Shown here one piece after another: positions 3,855 through 43,475 of a stretch of DNA of 64,000 nucleotides. Source of the DNA: Chrysoperla carnea (taxonomy: Eukaryota > Arthropoda > Insecta > Neuroptera > Chrysopidae); the NCBI RefSeq assembly GCF_905475395.1, contig NC_058337.1, positions 111,222,368 to 111,286,367 on the forward strand, in the 5' to 3' direction. Below the pieces are notes generated by a model that was given only the letters and a program-made list of their open reading frames with translations, searched no databases and was not told the origin of the DNA. Both the position numbers and the translations under genes were made by a program. The first letter of the stretch is position 1; each line of letters opens with the position of its first letter.

Positions 3855-4842
3855 ATGTGTACTATTTGTGACAACACTCACGTTGCTGCAGATAATACTT
3901 ATAGTTTATAAGCTTTTTTTATATCTTTCCAATAAATCGCTAAAAAAGATTGTTCTTAATATTTGTTTAATCATTCTTCAAAACAGTTTTTAAGGTATAC
4001 ATGAAACTATGCCAATTTTGATACTTATTCCCGTTGCATAATTACTATGTGAATTTTAATTATAAGTATCTCGCTTTTCAATCGATGGAATAAATAAAAG
4101 TTTTTGACAAATTAAATAGGTACAACAAGATTAACGCTGTTTGTTGATTTCATGTAATTCCTTAGAAATGTGGATTTATGGCTAACTACCTTAAGCCATA
4201 TAATTTTTTTTTATACAATACTGTAATAATCGAAGTAATCTCCTGTAAATTGTAGGTCGCTAGATTTTGTATAAGACTATGCATGCAATCATGTGGTTTT
4301 GAACTTGGTATCCTGTTCTATGATGTAATATGAAGACGTAATTATTACCTGTACTTAATAATAGATTGGTGATATAAGTTTATATTAATAAACCATTGAT
4401 TGATGTCTTCTTACATCTAAGTAGAAACCGAAATTGGAAGGATATATTTGAAATATAGATTTTCTGCTATCATAAACAAATTTTTTGAAAGGCATTCATG
4501 TGAGTGCGGCCCTTATGGTTTACATCATCAACTTAAAGAATCAACTCAGAATGTCAAGACTAAGAAGAAATTAAATATGTTCTTAATCTATCATTTCATT
4601 CTCATAAAAAAAAAAAATATTGTCTCAAAATGTGCGCTCATAGGTATCAAACCGAAAGTGGTGTAAATACATTGTACCGGCTATGACTTGAATTTCCGTA
4701 CCGCTTAGAATTACTTCCTAATACAATAACGGTAAAAAAATAACTTCTAAAGGGGCTTTCTAATTGAATTTGAATATTTCAAAAATATCTGTTTTGTGCA
4801 CTTTTGGTGAAATTACAAAATTTTATTTTTGTAATGTTTCAG
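3855..4842. other. Upstream region of the NPF exon
   Basis: Ends with a usable acceptor (TTTTTGTAATGTTTCAG). A 5' exon or promoter probably lies further upstream but could not be placed. The 72-residue frame at 4448 looks accidental. Confidence 0.4.
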
Positions 4843-5111
4843 AAAACTTCAAATCAAAGAATAATGTTCCCTAAAATGACAATGATTGGTGACAACGCTT
4901 CATCTCCAGCAACCACAATAAAGAAAACCAACAAGAGGACATCATCCACAAAATGGATTTTAGCGTATGGCATCGCATTTTGTGCATTGGCTGCATGGAT
5001 GATTACTGTTTGTGATGCGAAGCCTGCTCCAGTACCGCCACAAGAATTGGCTGATGCATTAAAAGTGTTACAACAATTGGACCGTTACTATTCACAAGTG
5101 GCTCGTCCTAG
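4843..5111 (+). CDS. NPF: Neuropeptide F (long NPF) precursor, exon with signal peptide and mature peptide; 3' exon missing
   Basis: The product should be a secreted, C-terminally amidated neuropeptide of the NPF/NPY family, which acts on a G-protein-coupled receptor in feeding and gut-brain signalling. The exon follows an acceptor (TTTCAG, ends 4842). The first ATG in frame is 4864, with other in-frame ATGs at 4876 and 4882. Residues 1-30 are polar and basic. Residues 31-52 form a hydrophobic signal segment ending VCDA. The mature part starts at KPAPVPP (residue 53) and ends DRYYSQVARPR at residue 83. This matches the known insect NPF C-terminus YSQVARPRF-amide. The last arginine codon is split: CCT AG then the donor gtcagt at 5112 (phase 2). 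The next exon should therefore supply the last base, Phe and the Gly amidation donor followed by a dibasic site. I did not find that exon by eye. The upstream exon, probably 5' UTR, is also unplaced. The family call is confident and the gene model is partial. Confidence 0.88.
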
Positions 5112-6970
5112 GTCAGTGTTGAAATTTTTAATTTTTATCAATCTTTTTAGTTGAGTTAGAGAAATTTCTTTCATTAACAACAGGTCAAGGCACTAACCTC
5201 TACGTAATATTCTTCGGTAATTTGGAAAGCAATTACTTTTTTCAACTTTTCCAGTATTATCTTGAGGTTTCAATTAATTACCGGGGTATATTATGAGATT
5301 AATGTTTTGATTAAAAGAAATTCATTATAGTTTTAATTAACTAAAATTTTGATACATGCTTTTTTAATGTTTTCTGTTCAAGATTCTCATGTTCTGATAA
5401 TAAAGAATATTTTTTTAGAAGAGTTATAAAAAATCGAAATAATATCAATCGGCATCAGGTTCATTGGAAAACTCTTTTTCTATCGTTTTTGATTAAATAT
5501 GATTTTGGGTTTGGGAATACTATTGCCTGGCTCGTATGAAGTGTCAAGTGTCAAGTGACAAGATGCGAAAACGATACATGACTACACTATTTCTAGTGGG
5601 AGTCAACTTGATAGCTGACAGATGATTTTGTTATTTCACCATAAAGATGTCTATGCCATATAGATTTTAAGGTCGAAAATTGGACTTCTGGATTACACTT
5701 CAATACAGTCAGCCCTTAGGCTTCAAATCATATTTAAACATTAATGACATGGAATTAGCTTTCCAATATACTTAATTAATCGCGATTGATATTATTTTAA
5801 TGTGTTTAACTTCGATTTAAGTTTAATGTATTAAAAAATACTTTAAAGCTTTGAAGAATTATTCAATATTTTTCATGGGCTCTGATATACAGGGTAGCCC
5901 AATAAAAAAACTTTAAAAAAGTTGCAGAGTTTGATTGGGGATATCATGTTCTGACATCAGATTAGACTTATAGTTTTCCCGGTTGCTTTAATAATTAAAT
6001 CAGGCACTAAAAGATAAGAGATAGAGTAACAGTTTAAATTCGGCTTTGATAATAGAAAAACGAACATTTTTTATTCAAAACATTTTTTCGAAAATCGTTA
6101 CCCTTCGGAGGAAACGCGAATCAAAATTATGCCATGTATCATTGCATTTAATCGAAAATAAATACACTTAAAGTATATAACGATAATTGTTGGTGGAAGT
6201 CATGGATACAAGCGAATGTCCTCTGTTGCCCTTGAAACCTTTTGGCTTAAGCATTTTTCTGTAGTTGATTTTTATAAATTTTTTCGATTAAATCAATAAT
6301 TACATATTTTTAAGTCGCATTTCATTCGAAAACTAAGGATTTCGAAAAAATATTTTGATTAAAAAATGTTTGTCTTTTTATGAGGATCAACTTTCTTCTT
6401 CAAAGTGTTATTTTATCATCTCAAACTTATAACACCCCTTAATTTTGGGGAAAAAGGTTTAAAATTGAAAATAACCAGTAATGGGCACTTGTGGCTCAAG
6501 CATTTGGGAAATACTTTTAATTGAAAATGTGCAACAACAGTCAAAAAACTTTGATACTGGAATATGGTACAAAAATAGTTGTAAAAGAATATTTAAAAAT
6601 TAAATCTTTATACTTTAACGTAAAACTTTTATATTTCTTTTTGAACTTATTAAAAAATTTATAAGAAATAACAGTCCTCTTTAAATTACTCAATTACTTT
6701 CAAGGAGTAAATAAATATTTCCATTTCACTACTGTAGTTTATTTTCTAAACTAATTGTTCTGGTTACATAAATTGAACATAACAAGTACTGCATTTATGC
6801 AATAAAAACGAAGATAAAAATTTTAAAAGGTATATGATGTTTCATTTTAAATGAGGGATGCATTTTTCTTCTCAAGTTTGCTTACATTTAAAATATTTTG
6901 TACAAAAGTTGATTCTTCTTAGTTAAAAAGAAATAACTTTGCACTCGTATTTTGCCATAGAGATATGAAG
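5112..6970 (+). other. Start of the NPF intron
   Basis: Opens with the donor GTCAGTG. It contains a short minus-strand family B relic (about 6421-6475, AAACTTATAACACCCC). No exon with the expected phase and an F-G-K/R-R start was seen. Confidence 0.45.
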
Positions 6971-31594: not shown

Positions 31595-34566
31595 TTAATA
31601 AATCGTCCGAATTATATTTGGTTGATAAACAGATTTGTATTGTTTGAGCAAATCCTCTGTTAAATGTGTTTCTCGGCTGCAAGTATGATTCATAGTGACA
31701 ACACAAACTGGATTAGTGCCGTCGAAATAGTCTACGGGGTAAATTTCTATATTTAAACGATAAATATCATTCATAATTTCATTTAGACATGAACATTGCC
31801 AGGGGTTTCGACCGAATCGTAGAAACTTTAATTTGGATCGTTGTAAGAAATCTTTATCAAAGAATGTTAATCTATTTCCATGTAAATGTAACCGTTCCAC
31901 GTAACAATCTTCACCTTCAAATATTTCTGGTGATAAATCAATCAACTGATTTTCGTCTAATTTTACTTCAAATAATTGTGGAATGTTAAACAACTCATTA
32001 GGAATAGATGCTAACATATTTCCAGATAAATCTAATTTTTCTAAAGACAGCATGTCCTTAAATAGTTCACCATCAATTGTTTTTATTAAATTTTTATTTA
32101 ACTCTAAGAGATTAACATTTTCTAAATCATCAAAAATTCCCAATTTCAATTCTTCAATTTTATTTCCGCCCAATTTTAAAATTTGTAAAGTATTACCCAT
32201 CGCTTTGAACAAGTCAGAGTCCATGGTTTTTACTTTTGAATATGAGACATCCAAAGATATTAATCTAGATAAAGGATTCAACATATACGATGACAAATGT
32301 GTTAAATTACTTCCCGATAAGTCTAAATTTAAAATACGTGAGGATTCATCAGTGTATCCCTCATGAAAACCATTAAACGCTCCTTCTTGGATGTCCGTGA
32401 CACCATTAGAACTTAAACTTAATTTATTCAACTCTACAAGCTTAGAAAATATATTAGGTTCAAGTTGTTTTAACTGATTTTGATATAACATTAATGTTTT
32501 TAAGTGAATCAAATTATCAAATGAACCAGGTTCAATATAGGTAATTTGATTTCGTGTCAAAAACAATTCCTTAAGATTAGTTAGATGAACGAAAACATCT
32601 TTCGGTACTGAAGTTAAAGCATTGCCTTCTAAAGTTAAAAAATTTAATTTTTTTAAATATCTAAAAACATTCGCATTTAATTTTGAAATTTGATTATAGC
32701 TTAGAAATAAATCTTTTAACTTTGCATTCCGTTCAAATAAATTTTCGGGTAAATCTGTTATCTGATTTTGGTGTAATGACAAAAATAAAAGATTACGTAA
32801 ATATCGTAATATTCCCGAAGGTAATGATTTAATATTATTATAACTTAAATTTAAATGCTCCAATCGAACAGTGTCTTTAAAAATATCATCCGATTCAAAA
32901 TCAGAAATTGCGTTTGCATAAATTCTTAAGGTTTTTAAACGACGTAAATGAAGGAAAAAATCATTTTTTAAAACTTTAAAATTACATCTTGCAAAATTTA
33001 ATTCTAAAATTGAAGACGAATGTAAACTTGATTTGGTCGCAATTCCCGATAAATCTGAACGAAATGAATCAGGTTTTAATTGTGATATTGGATTACCATC
33101 TAAATCGACCCGTTTTAAGTTAACATTTTCTAAAAATGTATTCGATTCAATGTCTTCAATTAAATTACCGCTTAAATTTATTTCTTTTAATTGTGTTAAA
33201 GATGTAAATATATTTTTTATAATAGTTAAACGATTTTGTCCAAGATTTAGTTGAACTAAATCAGGTAATCGTGCAAATGTTTCACGTAAAATATTCGTTA
33301 TGGCATTATGGCTTATGTTTAACACACGTAATTGAACATTACCTTCGAACATTTTCGATGGTAATGATTTTAATTGATTATAACTTAAGTCTAAATAAGT
33401 TAACGATGGTATGTTTCTGAATGCCTCGGATTCTATATTTTGGATACCATTACCGCTTAATTTTAACGCAGATAGTTTTGGATATGCTATGGCATTTTTT
33501 TCCAGTCTTCTTATGATTCCACTAATTGATTCTAGTTCAGTATACAAATCCTGTAACAAATACAATTGGTGAAAATTATAATTATAAGGGTTCTTTAAAT
33601 AACCTACATCTATTTGCTTAAAGTTATTAAATCAAGACAAAAATATTTCATCTGTAAAGAAAATAAAAATCAGTGAAAAATTCAAAAATATATTGCAATG
33701 GTTTTCTTGTTTTATATTTTTTATACCGTCAGCAGTTGCTGAGCATCCCGCCAAAACTCACATTAGCTTTCTGTACTCCAGTCTGTCTGTCAGTAAATAC
33801 AATAACTCGAAAACGCAAAAAGATATCAATCTAAAATTATTATAGCGTGCTCAAGTCGTAAAAAGTGAGGTTGAGAGAACACGGGTCAACTGTGGCTATT
33901 TAATAGTGACTATCTTTCTTTACTTACATGACGTAAAAAACAAACGAATGGGTAATCGACATTGTCTATACATGGTATTTCAATAATTTACTCATGTAGT
34001 ATCGATTTTTGACGTTTTTTTTGAAAATTACTCGCCCAATCGTTAAATGAACCCGATTTTTGTGTTTTTTGGGTCAAAATTACCTTATGTACTGAGTTTT
34101 ATCTAAATTGGAGACAACAAATTTTTCTTGATTTTTTGAAATTTTCTAAAGGGGTACTTACCCCTTAAAAAAAATCGAAAAAATCTACAAAATTTTTTTA
34201 TTTCGGAATTTAATGAAAAACAGTTTATAAAGTAATTTTGACCCATAATATCCAAAAATCGTATTCATTTGGCGATTGGAAGAGTATTTTCTGAGCAAAT
34301 GGTCATGTAGTATCAATTTTTGACGTTATACCAAATGAAGTACACAAAGAGGTTGGAACAATTATTTAAAAAAATGTTTAAATTAAAATTTATTAAATAT
34401 GATATACAGTTACCTTATCTTGCAGTGCATTTAGTTTTTGTAAATTTGAATAATAACATTTTGCTATAGAACGATTAGCAATATTAATTCTTTCACATTC
34501 AGATGTAATATTTTTAATATTTAATATTAAAATTAATCCACTAAATATTAATTGATAATACTTCAT
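31595..34566 (-). CDS. Secreted leucine-rich-repeat protein, tandem paralogue 1
   Basis: Two exons: 34414-34566 and 31595-33550, with a phase-0 intron (donor AAG|gtaact, acceptor ttacag|GAT). The product is 702 residues. Residues 1-22 are a signal peptide (MKYYQLIFSG onward). A short N-cap follows with CERIN...AKCYYSNL, two cysteines and an NRS glycosylation sequon. After that come about 22 typical 24-residue LRRs of the LxxLxLxxNxIxxI type, then an LRRCT-like cap that starts NPWQCSC and has four cysteines. No transmembrane segment or GPI signal follows the cap, so the protein is probably extracellular. An in-frame ATG 30 bases upstream (34596) exists. I chose 34566 because it aligns with the starts of both paralogues. 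Its 863-bp intron is enlarged by a repeat A fragment and a foldback element. The exact role is unknown; secreted LRR proteins of this design include immune-recognition and salivary or gut proteins in insects. Confidence 0.85.
33721..33991 (-). repeat. Dispersed repeat family A, truncated copy 4 in LRR paralogue 1 intron
   Basis: A partial minus-strand copy with an internal deletion. It ends abruptly at the point where the foldback element at 33992 begins, and is one reason why this intron is longer than those of the paralogues. Confidence 0.65.
33992..34327. mobile_element. Foldback (long inverted repeat) element in LRR paralogue 1 intron
   Basis: Two arms of about 135 bp are imperfect reverse complements around a perfect centre AAGGGGTACTTACCCCTT at 34149-34166. 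The best-conserved arm parts are the CCAATCG, AAATGAA, CGATTTTTG and GGGTCAAAATTAC blocks near the outer ends. The whole is bracketed by a 25-bp direct repeat beginning TCATGTAGTATC (33992-34016 and 34303-34327, one mismatch). Confidence 0.65.
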
Positions 34567-34690
34567 TATAAAAAATAATTTTTTTAAAATTGACAACTAC
34601 TAATATTTTAAAACATATTTCAAAAGTTGTGACTTTGAAATCTTTAAAATGAATTATAATATACAGCGAACTGTGTATAAACCAATTTTA

Positions 34691-34752
34691 TAAGGAAAAA
34701 TTAATTTAAAAAATAACCAGTTATGTTAGTAAAATACGTAAGGTCACGTCAT
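34691..34752 (-). promoter_or_regulatory. Conserved upstream block of LRR paralogue 1
   Basis: On the + strand the block reads TAAGGAAAAATTAATT at 34691, then GGTCACGTCAT at 34742-34752, about 176 bp upstream of the ATG. The same two elements in the same order precede paralogues 2 and 3. On the coding strand the distal element is ATGACGTGACC, close to a CRE half site. A TTATAAAAT TATA-like string lies just downstream of the proximal element. Function is inferred from conservation only. Confidence 0.5.
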
Positions 34753-35574
34753 AGGTAAGAAAGAAATCGTTTTATTGTAGGAAAAATAATGCATATCTAG
34801 TTACAAGGCTATTTATTATTCAATTAAAAATTTATTAAAATTTTTTGATCATACAAAACTTTGTATTAATATTAATAATATTTATTTTAAATATTTTTTT
34901 TAATAAAAAATTGATTTAGCAACATCATCTCAAACTGATTAGGATCAACATAAATTTCAAATTATGTAGATTACAAAACATAGAGAGATAATACAGGTAA
35001 TATAGAAGCTAGTTACTCTTGTCCATAATGCACTAAATTACAAGAGTTACTTTTTTATTTAAATAGGTTCAGTATCACGTACTGAATGTAAATGCACAGA
35101 ATCCTTACAAAAATCGACAGCGGAAGTGCCTCCATTTTTAAGGAAAACCGTTTTAGGCTATATTTGCATAACCGTGCACTATAGACCAAAAATGGTAATA
35201 ACCTTTATTGTAGATTATTAAATTACCTACCTTTTTTGTAAAACAATTTTTTTTTGTATCACTATCTTTATGACTTATTCGACTATCATGATTTACTTTC
35301 TGCCTAATGAATAAAAAATCGAAGTTTAAAAAAATTTTACCTGAATTTTGGTTTCTATCAAAATATTTATGTCGTTTTTTTATAGAGACCAAGAATAAAT
35401 GTTTATTAAGAAAAAGGTTCAAAGGTTTTCTTACTTACAAAATTAGTCAATCTTAAATTTAAAACAAAAACAAACCAGAAAGCTAGAAAATATGGCGAGA
35501 AAATATTGTTAAAAATACCATTTATTCAAAATACCAAAATTTTATAATTAGTACCAAACATTTTAAATAAATTT

Positions 35575-37928
35575 TTAACTCCAATCAACCGTTCGAATAA
35601 CATTACTATGTTTAACAGATTTGTATTGTTTGAGACAGTCGTCTGATAAATATGTTTCACGTGTACAAGTTTCATTCATACTGACAACACACACTGGATT
35701 AGTTCCATCGAAATAGTCCACAGGATGAAATTCTATATTCAAACGATAAATATCGTTCATAATTTCATTTAGACACGAACATTGCCAGGGATTGAAACCC
35801 AGTCGCAAAAATTTTAATTTGGATCGTTGAAGGAAATCTTTATCAAAGAATGTTAATCTATTTCCATGTAAGTGTAACCGTTCCACGGAACAATCTTCAC
35901 CTTCAAATATCTCTGGTGATAAATAAATAAGCTGATTTTCGTTTAATCTAACTTCAAATAATCGTGGAATATTAAACAACTCGCTTGGTATGGAAGCTAA
36001 CATATTTTCGGATAAATCTAGTTTCTCTAAAGACAGCATGTTTTTAAATAATTCACCATCAATTGTTTGTAACAAATTTCGATGCAGATCTAAATGATTT
36101 ACATTATCTAAATTATCAAAAATTCCTACTTGTAATTTGGCAATTTTGTTTGCGGCTAAAATTAAAATTTGTAATGTATCTCCCATAGATTTGAAAAAAT
36201 CAAAGTCTATAGTTTTTACACTTGAGAATGATATATCCAGTGATATTAATCTAGATAATGGAGCAAATATATTATACGATAAATGCGTTAAATTACTTCC
36301 GGATAAATCCAAATCTAAAATTCGAGAAGATTCATCAGAGTACCCATCGTGGAAACTGTTAAACGTTCCATATTGAATGTCAGTGACACCATTAGCTTTT
36401 AAACTTAGACTATTTAATTCAATAAGCTTAAAAAATAAATTCGGTTCTAGTTGTTTTAGTTCATTTTGATACAACATCAATGTTTTTAAGTGAACCAAAC
36501 TATCAAAGGAACCAGGTTCAACATAGGTTATTTGATTTCGTGTTAAAAACAGTTCTTTAAGTTCAGTTAGATGAACAAAAACATCTTTTGGTACTGAAGT
36601 TAAAGCATTACCTTCTAAATTTAAATGATTTAATTTTTTCAAATATTTAAAAACTTCTGAATTTAATTTAGAAATTTCATTATAGCTTAAATGCAATTCC
36701 TTTAATTTGGAATTTCGCTTAAATAAATCCCGGGGCAAATCTGTAATCTGATTATATCGGAGTGTTAAAAACTGTAAGTTCCTTAAAGGACTGAATATAC
36801 CTGGAGGTAATTCCTTAATGTTATTATAACTTAAACGTAAATGCTCTAATCGAATATTATCTTTAAAAACATCATTCGATTCAAACTCAGAAATTTCGTT
36901 TGATTGAATATTTAATAGTTTTAAACGGCGTAAATGAAGAAAATAATGATCTTTTAAAATTTTAAAACTACATAATCCCAAATTTAACTCCGTTATAGTA
37001 GCTGAAGGCGATTGAAATGGTACATAGGTATTGGCAATTCGTGATGTGTCCGATCGAAATGTATCAGGTTTTAAATCTGATAATGGATTATAACCTAAAT
37101 GGACTCGTTTTAAATTAACATTTTCTTCAAATGTATTCGGTTCAATTTCTTTAATCTGGTTACCAACTAAATGTATTTCCTCTAACTGCGTTAATGATGT
37201 GAATATATTTTTTATGACAGTTAATTGATTGTTTTCAAGATTTAATTCAATTAAATCAGGTAATCTTGCAAATGTATCACGTAAAATATTAGATATCGAA
37301 TTTTGACTCATATTTAAGACCCGTAATTGAACATTACCCTCAAACATTTTTGAAGGTAATGATTTTAAATGGTTACCACTTAAATCTAAATAAATTAATG
37401 CTGGCATGTTGCTAAAAGCTGCAGTTTCTATATTCTGGATACCATTATTGATCAATTTTAAAGTTGATAATCTTGGATACGCAATGGCATTTCTTCTTAA
37501 TGTTTTTAATTTACCCTCAATAACTTGCAATTCATTAAATGAATCCTGAAAAAAAAATTATTTTCTTTAGAAAAATTTAAATGATAATAATTATATTTAT
37601 AATGAAATGATGTTATTGTAGATTTAATTAAAATTTTGAAACTAGTAGATATTTTTGAATTGGTCATAGGTAGGTATTACACAAAAACCGTAGGACTGGT
37701 GTTAATAACAGTAAAAAATCAAAATTTTCAAACTAATCTCTCGTTCACTAAAAAACTTTTATAAACAGCACTTACCGTATTTTGTACAGCATTCAATTCT
37801 TTTAAATTTGAATAATAACATTTTGCTACAGAACGATTGCCAACATTAATTCTTTCACAATCAGTTTTAATATTTTTTATATTTAATATTAAAATTAATC
37901 CACTAAATATTAATTGATAATAATTCAT
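35575..37928 (-). CDS. Secreted leucine-rich-repeat protein, tandem paralogue 2
   Basis: Exons 37776-37928 and 35575-37545, phase-0 intron of 230 bp (ACG|gtaagt; ttttttcag|GAT). The product is 707 residues: signal peptide MNYYQLIFSG onward, N-cap CERINVGNRSVAKCYYSNL, about 22 LRRs and an LRRCT-like cap (NPWQCSC, then C and C) ending RTVDWS. The exon junction reads NAVQNT|DSFNELQV. Its architecture is the same as in both neighbours, and its LRR segments are nearly colinear with theirs, so the genes arose by tandem duplication. Between LRR6 and LRR7 all three paralogues carry a longer non-LRR linker (here around FRSDTSRIANTYV) that varies among copies. A possible AATAAA signal lies on the minus strand at 35521-35526, about 50 nt past the stop. 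No transmembrane segment is visible. The biological role was not identified. Confidence 0.87.
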
Positions 37929-38035
37929 TATAATAATTATGTTATAAATTATTTGAAAACATACTATTTTAAAACATATTTTACAACTTTTTTTGAGTTT
38001 GTGATATTTTTTAAATTAACTATGAAAAAATTTTA

Positions 38036-38098
38036 TGAGGAAAAATTGAATTAAATGTATACAGGTTTGTAACTCAGATTTGTATATGGTCACGTGAT
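38036..38098 (-). promoter_or_regulatory. Conserved upstream block of LRR paralogue 2
   Basis: The + strand shows GAGGAAAAATTGAATT and then GGTCACGTGAT at 38088-38098, about 160 bp upstream of the ATG. The distal core is a palindromic E-box, TCACGTGA. This is the type bound by bHLH-Zip factors of the USF/MITF/TFEB class. The factor is inferred and not shown. Confidence 0.5.
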
Positions 38099-38509
38099 AG
38101 TCTAGGAAGCATTTATTCATTCAGTTTGTTGCTGGAAAAAATGATAATTAAGAAGCAAGGTTAATAGTAATATATCCATTATTTATTTACATTTTTATAC
38201 TGTATGTAAATCGCAGTACTAACAGTAGAACTAGGTATATGAAGTGTGTTAGCTACCTCAATCTATATCTTACGATAAAAATACAGTCTGAGCCTACATT
38301 TCTCTAACGGAGCCTACAGTTCGAAAAAGTACACAAAAATTTGAGCATTTAGGTAAATAAACATTCCTCAATTAGCTTGACCGATGTAGAATTCCACAGT
38401 AGCTAAAAACAGATAGAGAAGTAATAAACAAGTGATAAATATCAACAGTACCTAATTTAGCTTCTTTTTATTGATAGGCAATTTTATTACAGATATGATA
38501 CACAAATTA

Positions 38510-38725
38510 CTATAGTTTTTACACTTGAGTATGATATATCCAGTGAATTGATAAAAATTCATAATTAAATGTAATTTTTTTGACTTATTAAAAACGATAA
38601 ATTGAACATATTTTACTAGTTTTGTGTTTGCTATAGAAAAGATTTAATTAAGAGTTACAAATCTTATAAATATACAGATTCAGATGAGTTACTGAGATCC
38701 AGGCATCCAGGCGAGGTCACGTGAT
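38510..38725 (-). pseudogene. Relic of a fourth LRR-cluster gene (exon fragment plus promoter block)
   Basis: Positions 38510-38546 match paralogue 2 exon 2 at 36207-36243 over 37 bases with one mismatch, in the same orientation. That segment codes for an LRR around SLDISFSSVKTI. Upstream in the transcription sense, 38715-38725 carries GGTCACGTGAT, with a following stretch rich in ATTCATTCA and TTTGTTG. This is the same block that precedes paralogue 2 at 38088. An exon scrap and a promoter scrap in the right order and orientation, with almost everything between them lost, is best explained by a deleted tandem copy. No reading frame survives. Confidence 0.6.
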
Positions 38726-38877
38726 ATGCCGTTGGGAAATATTCATTCATTCACTTTGTTGTTTGTGTTGGGTTTATTATCAAATGGCAAGGCTATAATA
38801 TATACATTGTTTATCTACTTCTGTAAGTCTATACATTTACGTAGAAATATGGCGGTAATATAAGAAAGAATTTTTAG

Positions 38878-39300
38878 CGAATTGCCGAAGGAAATGGAGC
38901 TATTTCTTTTGTACTAATTCTGGAATTTTGAAAAATTTTTTCAAATGTTCATCGATCCTACCTAATAAACGTCAAAAATGACCATCGTCAAAATTTATAT
39001 ATGTATCTGTCTAGCTGTAGCAATTTAAGTCCGATTTGAATAAAATTTGGTTTGGAAGAAGGGGGTTTTCATCTTTCAAAGGTCAAGTTCGTTAATGAGA
39101 AAAATCGAAAGATAAACAAGGGGTAAGGGATGTGCAAAGTACAAAATTTTGAATTTTTTTGAAAGTACTCTTGAATTTTTTCTCTAGACGCTTAGTTTTC
39201 GAAATTAAAATTTTTGGAAAACTAAAATTTCAATATTGGATTATTATAAAAATGTTTTATTTTTTAAATCTATGAGGGAATTTGCTTAGCAAACTTTTCT
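38878..39300 (+). repeat. Dispersed repeat family J, copy 1 (between LRR paralogues 2 and 3)
   Basis: Shares CCGAAGGAAATGGAGCTATT, AAATGTTCATCGATCCTACC, AAAGGTCAAGTTCGTTAATG, TCTCTAGACGCTTAGTTTTC and CTATGAGGGAATTTGCTTAG, in order, with 44294-44690. No coding capacity. Confidence 0.65.
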
Positions 39301-39721
39301 TTGAATTTGAGTTGAAACATAGTCATTGAAATAAATACGACGATACTCGAAATAATATTGTATATTAAGAAATTCTATTTAAAAAACAAAATTAAAAAAT
39401 CTACAGCCTTGTATTTCACCAAATATCGATATTTCGATTTCAACGCAACCATCGTCATTACCTAAATTTATTCAATTAACACATTACAAACATTCTTTAC
39501 AATGTTCTTATAAACATTCTTTACAACTCTACTAACACTAATCGAAAAAAATTATTTTACCCCTTTTTGATAGTAGGTCCCCATGTAAACGCTCCTATTT
39601 TGCCTATCGGAGAAATTTTAAATAGCAATTACAAAAATTGTAGGGGGAGGGGAGTTGAAATTTAGGTAAATTTTTCTATTAATGTCGATTTGAGTATCAG
39701 AAGTGTATGCTCTTTTTAGTT

Positions 39722-41916
39722 TCAATTCCATTCAACTGCTCGAAAAACTGTATCATGATCAACAGATTTGTATTGTTTAAGTAAATCCTCTGCTAAATAT
39801 GTTTCTCGTGTACAAGTATCATTCATTGTGACAACACACACTGGATTAGTTCCATCGAAGTAGGCCACAGAATAGAATTCTATATTTAGTTGATGCACAT
39901 CGTTCATAATTTCATTCAGACATGAACATTGCCAGGGATTGAAACCAATTCGTATAAACTTTAAACACGACCGTTTTAAGAAACCTTTATCAAAGAATGT
40001 TAATTTATTCCCATGTAAGTGTAACCGTTCCACGGAACAATCTTCACCTTCAAATATCTCTGGCGATAAGTAAATTAACTGATTATTGTTTAATCTTACT
40101 TCAAATAATCTTGGAATATTAAATAGCTCGCTAGGTATAGATTTTAACATATTTTCAGATAAATCTAATTTTTCTAAAGATAACATATTTTTAAATAATT
40201 CACCATCAATTATTTGTAACAAATTGCGATGCAAATCTAAGTGATTTACATTATCTAAATAATCAAAAATTCCCACCTCTAATTTCTCAATATTATTTTC
40301 GGCCAATATTAAAATCTGCAATGTATCTCCCATTGATTTGAAAAAATATATGTCTATAGTTTTTAAGTTTGAATTTGAGACATCCAATGATATTAACCTA
40401 GATAACGGAGAAAAAAGATTGTAAGATAAATGCGTTAAATTACTTCCCGATAAATTCAAATCTAAAATACGTGATGATTCATCAGCGTATCCATCATGAA
40501 AGCTATTAAATGTTCCATATTGAATATCTGTGATACCATTCGAACTTAAACCTAATTTACTTAATTCAATAAGTTTAAAAAACACATTAGGCTCAAGCTG
40601 TTTTAGCTTGTTCTGATACAACATCAATGTTTTTAAGAGAATCAAATTATTAAAACTTCCGGGCTCAATATATGTAATTCGATTTCCCGACAAAAACAAT
40701 TCCTTAAGTTCAGTTAAATAAACAAAGATATCTTTTGGAACCGATTTTAAAGCATTTCCTTCTAAATTCAAGCAATGTAAATGTTTCAAATATTTAAAAA
40801 CTTCTGTATTTAGTTCGGAAATATCATTATAACTTAAATGTAAGTGCTTTAACTTGGTGTTTCGTTTAAATAAGCCCGGAGGTAAATCTGTTATCTTATT
40901 TTGATGTAATGATAAAAACTGTAAATTTCGTAATGGATGGAATATACCTAAAGGTAGGTCTCTAATCTTATTATAACTTAAAAATAGACGCTCCAGTCGA
41001 AGATTGTCTTGAAAAATATCATTCGATTCAAACTCAGAAATTTCGTTTGTTTGCAGATTTAAAATTTTTAAACGCCGTAAATGAAAGAAATAATGTTCTT
41101 TTAAAATTGTAAATTCACATAATTTTAAATTTAATTCAAGGATAGTAGCCGATGGCGTACGAAATGATACATATGTGTTAGCAATTCGCCATGTATCCGA
41201 TCGAAATGTATCAGGTTTTAAATCTGATAATGGATTAAAATTTAAATGAACTCGTTTTAATTTAACATTTTCTACAAATGTATTCGGTTCAATGTCTTTA
41301 ATTCTATTATCAACTAAATTAATCTCTTCTAATTGTGTTAATGACGTTAGTATATTTTTTATAACAGTTAATTTATTATTTGCAAGATTTAATTGAATTA
41401 AATCAGGTAATCTTGCAAATGTATCACGTAAAATATTACAGATGTAATTTTCACTCATGTTTAGGACACGTAATTGAACATTACCCTCAAACATTTTCGA
41501 AGGTAATGATTTTAAATGATTACGACTTAAATCTAAATAAATTAATGCTGGCATGTTGTTAAAAGCTGCAGTTTCGATGTTCTCGATACCATTATTAATT
41601 AATTTTAGAGTTGATAATTTTGGATACATAATTGCATTTCTACTTAATGTTTTTAATTTACTCTCAATAACATTTAATTCAATGAATGAATCCTAAAATA
41701 AAAAGAGGACATTATTTATAATAATCTTGTTTTTAGAAAATTTAAACTTCTTACTGTAGAATAAATATTTTTCACATTATTTATTTGTTCTAAATTTGAA
41801 TAATAACATTTTGCTATGGAATGATTACCAACATTAATTCTTTCACATTCCGTTTGAATATTTTTAATATTTAATATTAGCATAAATCCACTCAAAATTA
41901 ATCGATTCGATTTCAT
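39722..41916 (-). CDS. Secreted leucine-rich-repeat protein, tandem paralogue 3
   Basis: Exons 41755-41916 and 39722-41692, phase-0 intron of only 62 bp (ACA|gtaaga; ttttag|GAT). The product is 710 residues. The signal peptide starts MKSNRLILSG. The N-cap is CERINVGNHSIAKCYYSNL. Exon 1 carries three extra codons (VKNIYST) before the junction compared with the other two genes. About 22 LRRs follow, then the NPWQCSC LRRCT-like cap, ending RAVEWN. An in-frame ATG 42 bases further upstream (41958) would add a hydrophilic leader before the signal peptide; 41916 fits the paralogues better. By eye it looks closer to paralogue 2 than to paralogue 1 (shared LINNGI and SATI...ELNL stretches). It has no membrane anchor. 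It is the most 5' gene of the cluster in transcription order. Function unknown beyond extracellular LRR binding. Confidence 0.87.
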
Positions 41917-42057: not shown

Positions 42058-43019
42058 GGTCTATACCATAATTACACAAGACAGTAAAAAATTTACTTAC
42101 TCAGTGTAGAGAAAAATAAACAAATAAACTTACCATGACTTTAAACTTGTTGTACTGTTCGTGAAGTTATGTGTTCTTCTACAGAACCAGCCAAGCATGA
42201 AGCACTTAAATGACGTCATAAGGTACATTATCTCGATGTTATAGGCAATTCAAATGGCATATTTGAAATTAATATTTTCATCAATGATTTTTTATGAAAA
42301 CTTGTCAATTATAAGAGTCTGAATAGAGCTAAGATGGAATAGTACTGAGATTAGATGATATGAGCTTGTCGAAAAATGAGGTTATTAATAAAAATTAAAT
42401 TCTTGGAATCGATGCTTCTTATTGAGATATTATAGCTTATAGTATAGAAGCCGGTGGGTGATCGATCTTCACCCATTTTCTTGAGAATTTAAAAAAGTCC
42501 AGTTCTAAGTTATTCAATATGATAACTACCCATTGCCCATTTTTTTTGCTAATGGCAGATTAATTCAGGTTCAAAAGGCGCTTAGTTTTTAAGCTCCGCT
42601 TTATATAAGACATCTTTGAATCGAGAAACGAACTATCGAACTTAAAACCTAGACAGTTTAGTTTAACCTTTGTAATAAATACCAAGCCTTTTTAAGAGAA
42701 TTCAAAAGTGTGGGAAAAAATTACCAATTACGTAAACCGAGACCTGAATCTCACGAAATAGATTGGGTTTGATAAAAAAAAAATTATTCATTTATAATTT
42801 AGCCCTTTATTGGGAGTTATAATTCTAAAAACCTGAATTAGCATCAAAATAATTTCCAAGAAGCGAGGATCCACTGTAAATAATCCCGTTCCCTTCCAGC
42901 ATTCCGTATTCTCCTCTTCCTCTATATTATTGAAATAAATTACAAATCCGTGAATACTGATGTATAATAGTGTTCGCTGACTGAGCCGTGGGAACTAAAT
43001 TCAAAGATTTGTTGAATGC
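42058..43019. other. Intergenic region 5' of the LRR cluster
   Basis: Lies upstream of paralogue 3 and ends at the hAT transposase fragment. Apart from the shared promoter block at its edge, nothing is recognised. Confidence 0.4.
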
Positions 43020-43475
43020 TTGGAAAAAATCAGACTGTTTCTGCAAAATAAGGAAAAAATTGAACAATACCCACAGTTATTGGATGTTATTTGGCTTTCA
43101 AAATTGATGTTTTTGTACAGACGTATATTAACGTTTCATATGCCGACAAGCTTCGAATGCAAGAAGCTTCAAGGCACAAATAAAACAATTACCATCATGA
43201 TAGTTCTCATTCGTGCTTTTGATGCTAAACTGCATGCTTTCAGGAACGATATTATTACAAGTGTTTCTCAAACTTCTCCAAACAAGATATCAAAGTTTCT
43301 TTTATGGCACGTCTATGGCCTGATTAAATATTTCTTTAGGAAAAATGGCATTTTGATACATCAAGATTCGCCAATCCTGTCCTATACTGTAAGAAGATAT
43401 TTTATGCTCTATATAGATTTAAAATATTTTCGATTTGTCAAAAATAAAAATTTATCTAGTCAACTCTTAAAATAA
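43020..43475 (+). pseudogene. hAT-type (ZBED/GTF2IRD2-like) transposase fragment
   Basis: The frame contains FLQNKEKIEQYPQLLDVIWL, then LQGTNKTITIMIVLIRAFDA and KLHAFRNDI. These resemble the middle region of hAT-superfamily transposases of the Charlie/Buster group and their domesticated relatives (ZBED5, GTF2IRD2, FAM200), where the linking segment is normally a continuous dimerisation region. Here the segment after LSKLMFL is replaced by unrelated residues, there is no plausible ATG (the frame opens at TTG), and neither the BED finger nor the DDE-bearing parts were seen. I take it as a decayed remnant of an autonomous element. Confidence 0.6.

What the first reader, a model, noticed from the sequence alone, without database searches (positions are those of the whole stretch)
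31595..41916. Tandem array of three uncharacterised secreted 22-LRR proteins
Three intact genes share one architecture: signal peptide and two-cysteine N-cap on exon 1, then one long exon with about 22 LRRs and an LRRCT-like cap and no membrane anchor. Tandem retention of intact, diverging, large extracellular LRR proteins is a pattern of recognition or effector families. I do not recognise a named family, so this is the best candidate for an undescribed system here.
Basis: partly seen in the sequence, partly recalled or inferred. Interest (0 to 1): 0.75.

Follow-up and report, generated by a model that had tools for sequence, protein, structure and literature searches.

The report
Three tandem secreted lacewing LRR genes
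Three neighbouring genes in the green lacewing genome encode large, apparently secreted leucine-rich-repeat proteins that belong to a wider family in the same genome; proteins of this general kind have been reported in lacewing venom, but it is not known whether these three are among them.

Summary
Genes A, B and C (minus strand, 31595-41916) are intact two-exon models for 702, 707 and 710 aa proteins: signal-peptide-like start and two-cysteine cap on exon 1; 22-23 LRRs and a four-cysteine C-cap on exon 2; no membrane anchor. The assembly matches Chrysoperla carnea inChrCarn1.1. The array is not unique: a C-cap search finds 17 loci in this genome at E<=1e-3, 16 open and one degraded, with a similar exon 1 upstream of 15 of the 16. 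AlphaFold gives a TLR3-like horseshoe. dN/dS is 0.20-0.29; an apparent excess of change on the concave face vanished with a proper comparison set (against 51, 75). LRR proteins are reported in C. carnea venom, but another LRR family of 12 loci exists here, and no locus could be linked to venom. Best reading: soluble ligand-binding LRR proteins of a lacewing multigene family, possibly venom components. New member of a known kind; an undescribed system is not supported.

The parts
34414..34566 (-). gene A exon 1: signal-peptide-like start and two-cysteine N-cap (51 codons)
   Evidence: 81% identical to gene B over 258 aligned bases of upstream DNA and exon 1
31595..33550 (-). gene A exon 2: LRR horseshoe and C-cap, to stop
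37776..37928 (-). gene B exon 1: signal-peptide-like start and N-cap
35575..37545 (-). gene B exon 2: 23 LRR strand motifs and C-cap, to stop
   Evidence: model pLDDT 89.6
41755..41916 (-). gene C exon 1: signal-peptide-like start and N-cap (54 codons)
39722..41692 (-). gene C exon 2: LRRs and C-cap, to stop
31628..31936 (-). gene A last LRRs and C-cap, used as the family-diagnostic query
   Evidence: 17 loci at E<=1e-3
35614..35922 (-). gene B C-cap region, 88% identical to that of A
39761..40069 (-). gene C C-cap region, 83% identical to that of A
38546..38761 (-). probable relic of a further promoter and exon 1 between genes B and C
   Evidence: two short collinear matches, E about 1e-5 in a 20 kb search; 0 of 500 dinucleotide shuffles reach the score, but narrowly (39.2 against a best shuffle of 38.3)

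Best explanation
A, B and C are three tandem copies of a gene for a soluble extracellular LRR protein. Exon 1 sends the protein out of the cell and starts the N-cap; exon 2 makes a capped LRR horseshoe of about 79 kDa with no anchor or signalling domain, so it most likely acts by binding something in an extracellular fluid. They belong to a family of 17 loci in Chrysoperla carnea that grew by tandem and dispersed duplication. My best guess for the role is that some members are larval venom or salivary LRR proteins that bind and occupy prey haemolymph proteins during feeding. Shown: gene structure, hydrophobic start, lack of a C-terminal anchor, predicted fold, family size, purifying selection. 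Taken from papers: LRR proteins occur in C. carnea venom. Inferred and unproven: that these loci are the ones expressed there, and what they bind.
Against: No transcript, tissue or peptide evidence for these loci; supplementary tables of the venom papers were not available. dN/dS of 0.20-0.29 and no concave-face excess in the trio do not show an arms race. Another LRR family of 12 loci could equally be the venom LRR proteins. Toll is not the best-scoring relative by sequence: LRRC15 and IGFALS score 156 and 154 bits, Drosophila Toll 110. Psyttalia hosts are fruit flies, so the parallel is not one of shared prey throughout.
Confidence: 0.4

Rival explanations
1. They are haemolymph or gut immune recognition proteins of the lacewing itself, working like mosquito LRIM/APL1 proteins or LRR-only pattern-recognition proteins: they bind microbial surfaces and recruit effectors.
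For: Secreted LRR proteins with cysteine caps do this in mosquitoes (PMC3020904, abstract and one section); the predicted fold resembles TLR ectodomains.
Against: The model ends in a short helix, not a coiled coil, and 23 LRRs in gene B exceed the 6-14 of LRIMs; this speaks against LRIM membership, not against the role. No sign of diversifying selection in the trio.
Confidence: 0.3
2. They are extracellular carrier, matrix or developmental proteins, like IGFALS or GARP, that bind the insect's own growth factors or hormones.
Against: LRR sequence scores are dominated by the repeat consensus and say little on function; 17 loci in one genome would be unusual for a carrier (recalled, not tested).
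Confidence: 0.2
3. They are truncated Toll receptors, copied from a lacewing Toll gene after loss of the membrane and TIR parts.
For: Fold similarity to TLRs.
Against: The family has its own C-cap, shared by its loci and not matched by Pfam LRRCT; in the PDB, Drosophila Toll scores below several non-Toll LRR proteins. Only indirect: I did not identify the Toll genes of this genome, and the long LRR frames that I scanned were cut by the ends of their loci.
Confidence: 0.05

Closest known systems
Leucine-rich repeat proteins (LRRP) reported in Chrysoperla carnea venom (PMC12758981; PMC11319779)
   Same: Same species, LRR proteins in a secreted mixture; PMC12758981 says the family is expanded in another green lacewing, PMC11319779 that its function is unclear.
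   Different: The parts of the main texts that I read name no loci, so identity with genes A-C is untested; another LRR family of 12 loci is an equal candidate.
Braconid venom LRR-only proteins of Aphidius ervi and Psyttalia (PMC4035087; PMC5078806)
   Same: Signal peptide, only LRRs, no TIR or membrane part; 9 to 19 LRRs in Psyttalia.
   Different: Likely convergence (inference).
Mosquito LRIM/APL1 family (PMC3020904)
   Same: Signal peptide, leading C-C motif, LRRs, secreted.
   Different: No C-terminal coiled coil in the model, no C-CC motif (here C-x-C ... C ... C), 23 instead of 6-14 LRRs.
Toll and TLR ectodomains
   Different: No membrane span or TIR found; own C-cap.

Membership tests
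Mosquito LRIM family | signal peptide and leading C-C motif before the LRRs | tested here: met
   C24 and C37 after a hydrophobic start in A, B and C; feature as given in PMC3020904, which notes exceptions
Mosquito LRIM family | 6 to 14 LRRs | tested here: not met
   23 strand motifs in B
Mosquito LRIM family | C-CC double-cysteine motif after the LRRs | tested here: not met
   pattern is C-x-C ... C ... C in the 15 of 15 aligned caps
Mosquito LRIM family | C-terminal coiled coil (absent in the 'Coil-less' LRIMs, so not strictly defining) | tested here: not met
   only a 13-residue helix near the end of the model; no coiled-coil predictor was run
Toll / TLR | transmembrane segment and TIR domain | tested here: not met
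   no TIR in Pfam for the three proteins, no C-terminal hydrophobic stretch
Toll / TLR | LRR horseshoe ectodomain | tested here: met
Pfam LRRNT/LRRCT-capped LRR proteins | matches to PF01462 and PF01463 | tested here: not met
   not listed at E<=0.001 for the proteins (B and C without exon 1, so LRRNT was tested on A only) nor for 15 cap segments at E<=10 (HMMER's filters drop most weak matches)
GPI-anchored LRR proteins such as chaoptin | C-terminal hydrophobic GPI signal (recalled) | tested here: not met
   best 19-residue hydropathy in the last 60 residues 0.31-0.73
C. carnea venom LRRP | peptides in the venom proteome and venom-gland expression | not testable with these tools
   no locus names in the passages and sections read; supplementary files not available
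The 17-locus C. carnea LRR family described here | C-cap N-P-x-x-C-x-C ... G-x-x-P-x-C ... C and two-exon design with hydrophobic start and cysteine pair on exon 1 | tested here: met
   exon 1 found at 15 of 16 open loci, the one at C1:73.87 Mb being a looser fit

The most novel reading that the evidence does not exclude
Green lacewings evolved their own family of injected, Toll-ectodomain-shaped LRR proteins that occupy prey haemolymph ligands, convergent with the LRR-only venom proteins of braconid wasps, one of which (Aphidius ervi) attacks aphids as lacewing larvae do.
Probability: 0.2. Interest if true: 0.65.

Novelty: new member of a known kind. Interest (0 to 1): 0.35.

Why it matters
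If these are the venom LRR proteins, the finding gives them gene models, a family of 17 loci, a predicted fold and a diagnostic cap, so that existing venom proteomes and RNA-seq can be assigned locus by locus. If they are not, it gives an insect multigene family of soluble LRR proteins whose ligands can be sought directly. Either way it is a well-defined but ordinary kind of protein.

Tried and rejected
Concave-face diversifying selection: seemed to show it (trio omega 0.37 against 0.22, permutation p 0.001; trio p 0.0022, and significant in 4 of the other 5 groupings, the pair at p 0.33 being the exception). The comparison set held buried consensus residues. With exposed convex positions only, in the 14 of 22 repeats of gene B that are exactly 24 residues long, the trio shows none (one-sided p 0.35 by codons, 0.52 by residues); the wider groups are marginal (p 0.036 for seven subfamily I genes, 0.068 for six of subfamily III). 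Rejected.

Local high dN/dS: codons 241-300 of A against C give dN 0.29 and dS 0.20. dS is unusually low there, the window was picked by eye from 22, and gene conversion was not tested formally; not relied on.

DNA pattern for the cap motif: 24 matches in the genome against 17 for the backward control, so the pattern is not specific by itself; the family count rests on the protein search.

NCBIfam matches, to bacterial LRR effectors, internalins and the like, all lie far below their cut-offs and reflect the repeat consensus only.

Rfam and tRNA scans of the window were empty (ARAGORN with the bacterial setting). A cap scan of viral contigs gave 31 pattern matches, none a relative by tblastn. 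Structure search with the cap model (pLDDT 81.0) gave 0 PDB matches at E<=0.001; best rows are lamprey VLRs at 9.2e-3, so the cap fold is left open.

Upstream motif CGTGACC stands at -182, -166 and -137 in 3 of 3 trio genes and in 1 of 12 other family genes examined over 700 bp (at -434), so it marks the trio's shared origin at most. An AATTTTTCCT element is shared by the trio and C1:86.29 Mb (by eye).

Exon-1 relic between B and C: chance-like matches of weaker score also appear elsewhere (for example inside gene A's coding exon, E 0.002), so the relic is called probable only.

Literature: ten searches of an open-access library; their listings showed no paper that I recognised as treating these loci, but I did not search by locus name. 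Wang et al. 2022 (Chrysopa pallens) is not held.

Full report
Identity of the genome. The window is C1:111222368-111286367 of an assembly of 559,487,470 bases in 337 contigs. C1 is 139,979,878 bases, exactly the longest scaffold given for Chrysoperla carnea inChrCarn1.1, which has 337 scaffolds and six chromosomes of matching sizes (PMC10116181, passages). The total differs slightly (560,248,701 in the paper), and C3 and C6 are a little shorter here. I take the species as established by this match; no marker gene was compared.

The observation. Three minus-strand genes were rebuilt from the sequence. Each has a short exon 1 with a hydrophobic start and two cysteines, a phase-0 intron (863, 230, 62 bp), and an exon 2 of 652 (A) or 657 (B, C) codons with the stop included. 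Proteins are 702, 707 and 710 aa. Gene B has 23 LRR strand motifs. With the signal peptide cut at an assumed site the proteins are 78-80 kDa with pI 6.0-6.3 and 4-6 N-glycosylation sequons. There is no C-terminal anchor. Protein identities are 74.1% (A-B), 69.1% (A-C) and 80.5% (B-C), dN/dS 0.233, 0.290 and 0.199, dS 0.56-0.65.

The family. A search with exon 2 of B returned relatives on other chromosomes and elsewhere on C1: C2:98.46 Mb (59%), C1:86.29 Mb (64% and 61% in two pieces), C3:4.29 Mb (51%), C2:1.09 Mb (45%) and more distant ones. Because LRRs match each other widely, I used the last repeats and C-cap as a diagnostic. The cap of gene A finds 24 places at E<=10, of which 17 at E<=1e-3: 16 in open frames and one degraded on C6. 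The tool scores only its best candidates, so the count is a lower bound. Upstream exons with a hydrophobic start and cysteine pair were found at 15 of the 16 open loci; none was recognised for C3:37.946 Mb, and the one at C1:73.87 Mb is a looser fit. Splicing of these was not checked. A second cluster lies at C3:37.935-37.948 Mb. In a tree of 16 rows (the 1392-codon frame cut to its last 640 residues, midpoint root) the trio forms one group (84/80), B with C (91/94), and C1:86.29 Mb joins them (100/100); two long branches are of unsure place.

History of the array. The promoter region and exon 1 are alignable between the copies. Between B and C, at 38546-38761, two short collinear matches suggest a dead promoter and exon 1; none of 500 shuffles reached the score, but the margin was small. 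So the array looks like a birth-and-death cluster, with this last point only probable.

Selection. The three copies are under purifying selection overall. My first tests of the concave face were positive but flawed, since the comparison group held buried residues. The corrected test shows no excess in the trio (omega 0.261 concave, 0.315 exposed convex, 0.029 buried) and only marginal excess in wider groups.

What is known. Two papers report LRR proteins in C. carnea venom. PMC11319779 (section 7 read in full; other passages) calls LRR proteins uncommon in animal venoms and of unclear function. PMC12758981 (sections 7 and 8 read in full; other passages) lists LRRPs in the venom and says the family is expanded in another green lacewing, citing Wang et al. 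2022, which I could not read. The parts read name no loci. LRR-only secreted proteins are also known from braconid venoms, where a role as scavengers in the host Toll pathway was proposed but, in the passages I read, not tested (PMC4035087, PMC5078806). In Lysiphlebus fabarum, LRR venom sequences were reported with caution (PMC7257214; passages).

Caution on the venom link. The same genome holds another family of LRR proteins with a different C terminus: 12 loci at E<=1e-3, of 16 places at E<=1. Whether that family is secreted was not tested. Either family, both or neither could be the venom LRRPs. I therefore put the venom role at about two in five, the immune role at three in ten and a carrier or matrix role at one in five; these are judgements.

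Verdict. They are members of a larger family of a known kind in a sequenced insect, with a testable link to venom. The claim of an undescribed system is not supported.

Noticed in passing
window 4774-5154 (+): Open frame that reads like the first coding exon of a neuropeptide F precursor (hydrophobic stretch, then ELADALKVLQQLDRYYSQVARPR before a GT); Pfam Hormone_3 matches weakly (E 0.014, below its cut-off). The following exon was not found in the window by pattern. The NPF label is recalled.
   Followed up: partly
L030, L004, L007, L023, L036 and other places on C1, C3, C5 and C6: Another expanded family of LRR proteins with a distinct C terminus (VTSI.KT...IY.I.C), 12 loci at E<=1e-3.
   Followed up: partly
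L044 (C3:37.934-37.942 Mb): A 1392-codon open frame carrying the same C-cap as the trio, about twice the usual length, next to two normal-length members; Pfam finds LRR models along it.
   Followed up: partly
L051 / L019 (C6:6.90 Mb; C6 has the size of the X chromosome): A degraded copy of the family with 11 stops in the matched stretch; described only.
   Followed up: no
window 42999-43475 (+): A 158-codon frame upstream of gene C is a dispersed repeat: 34 places at E<=1e-3 including itself, 32 of them with stops inside; no Pfam match at E<=0.1.
   Followed up: yes
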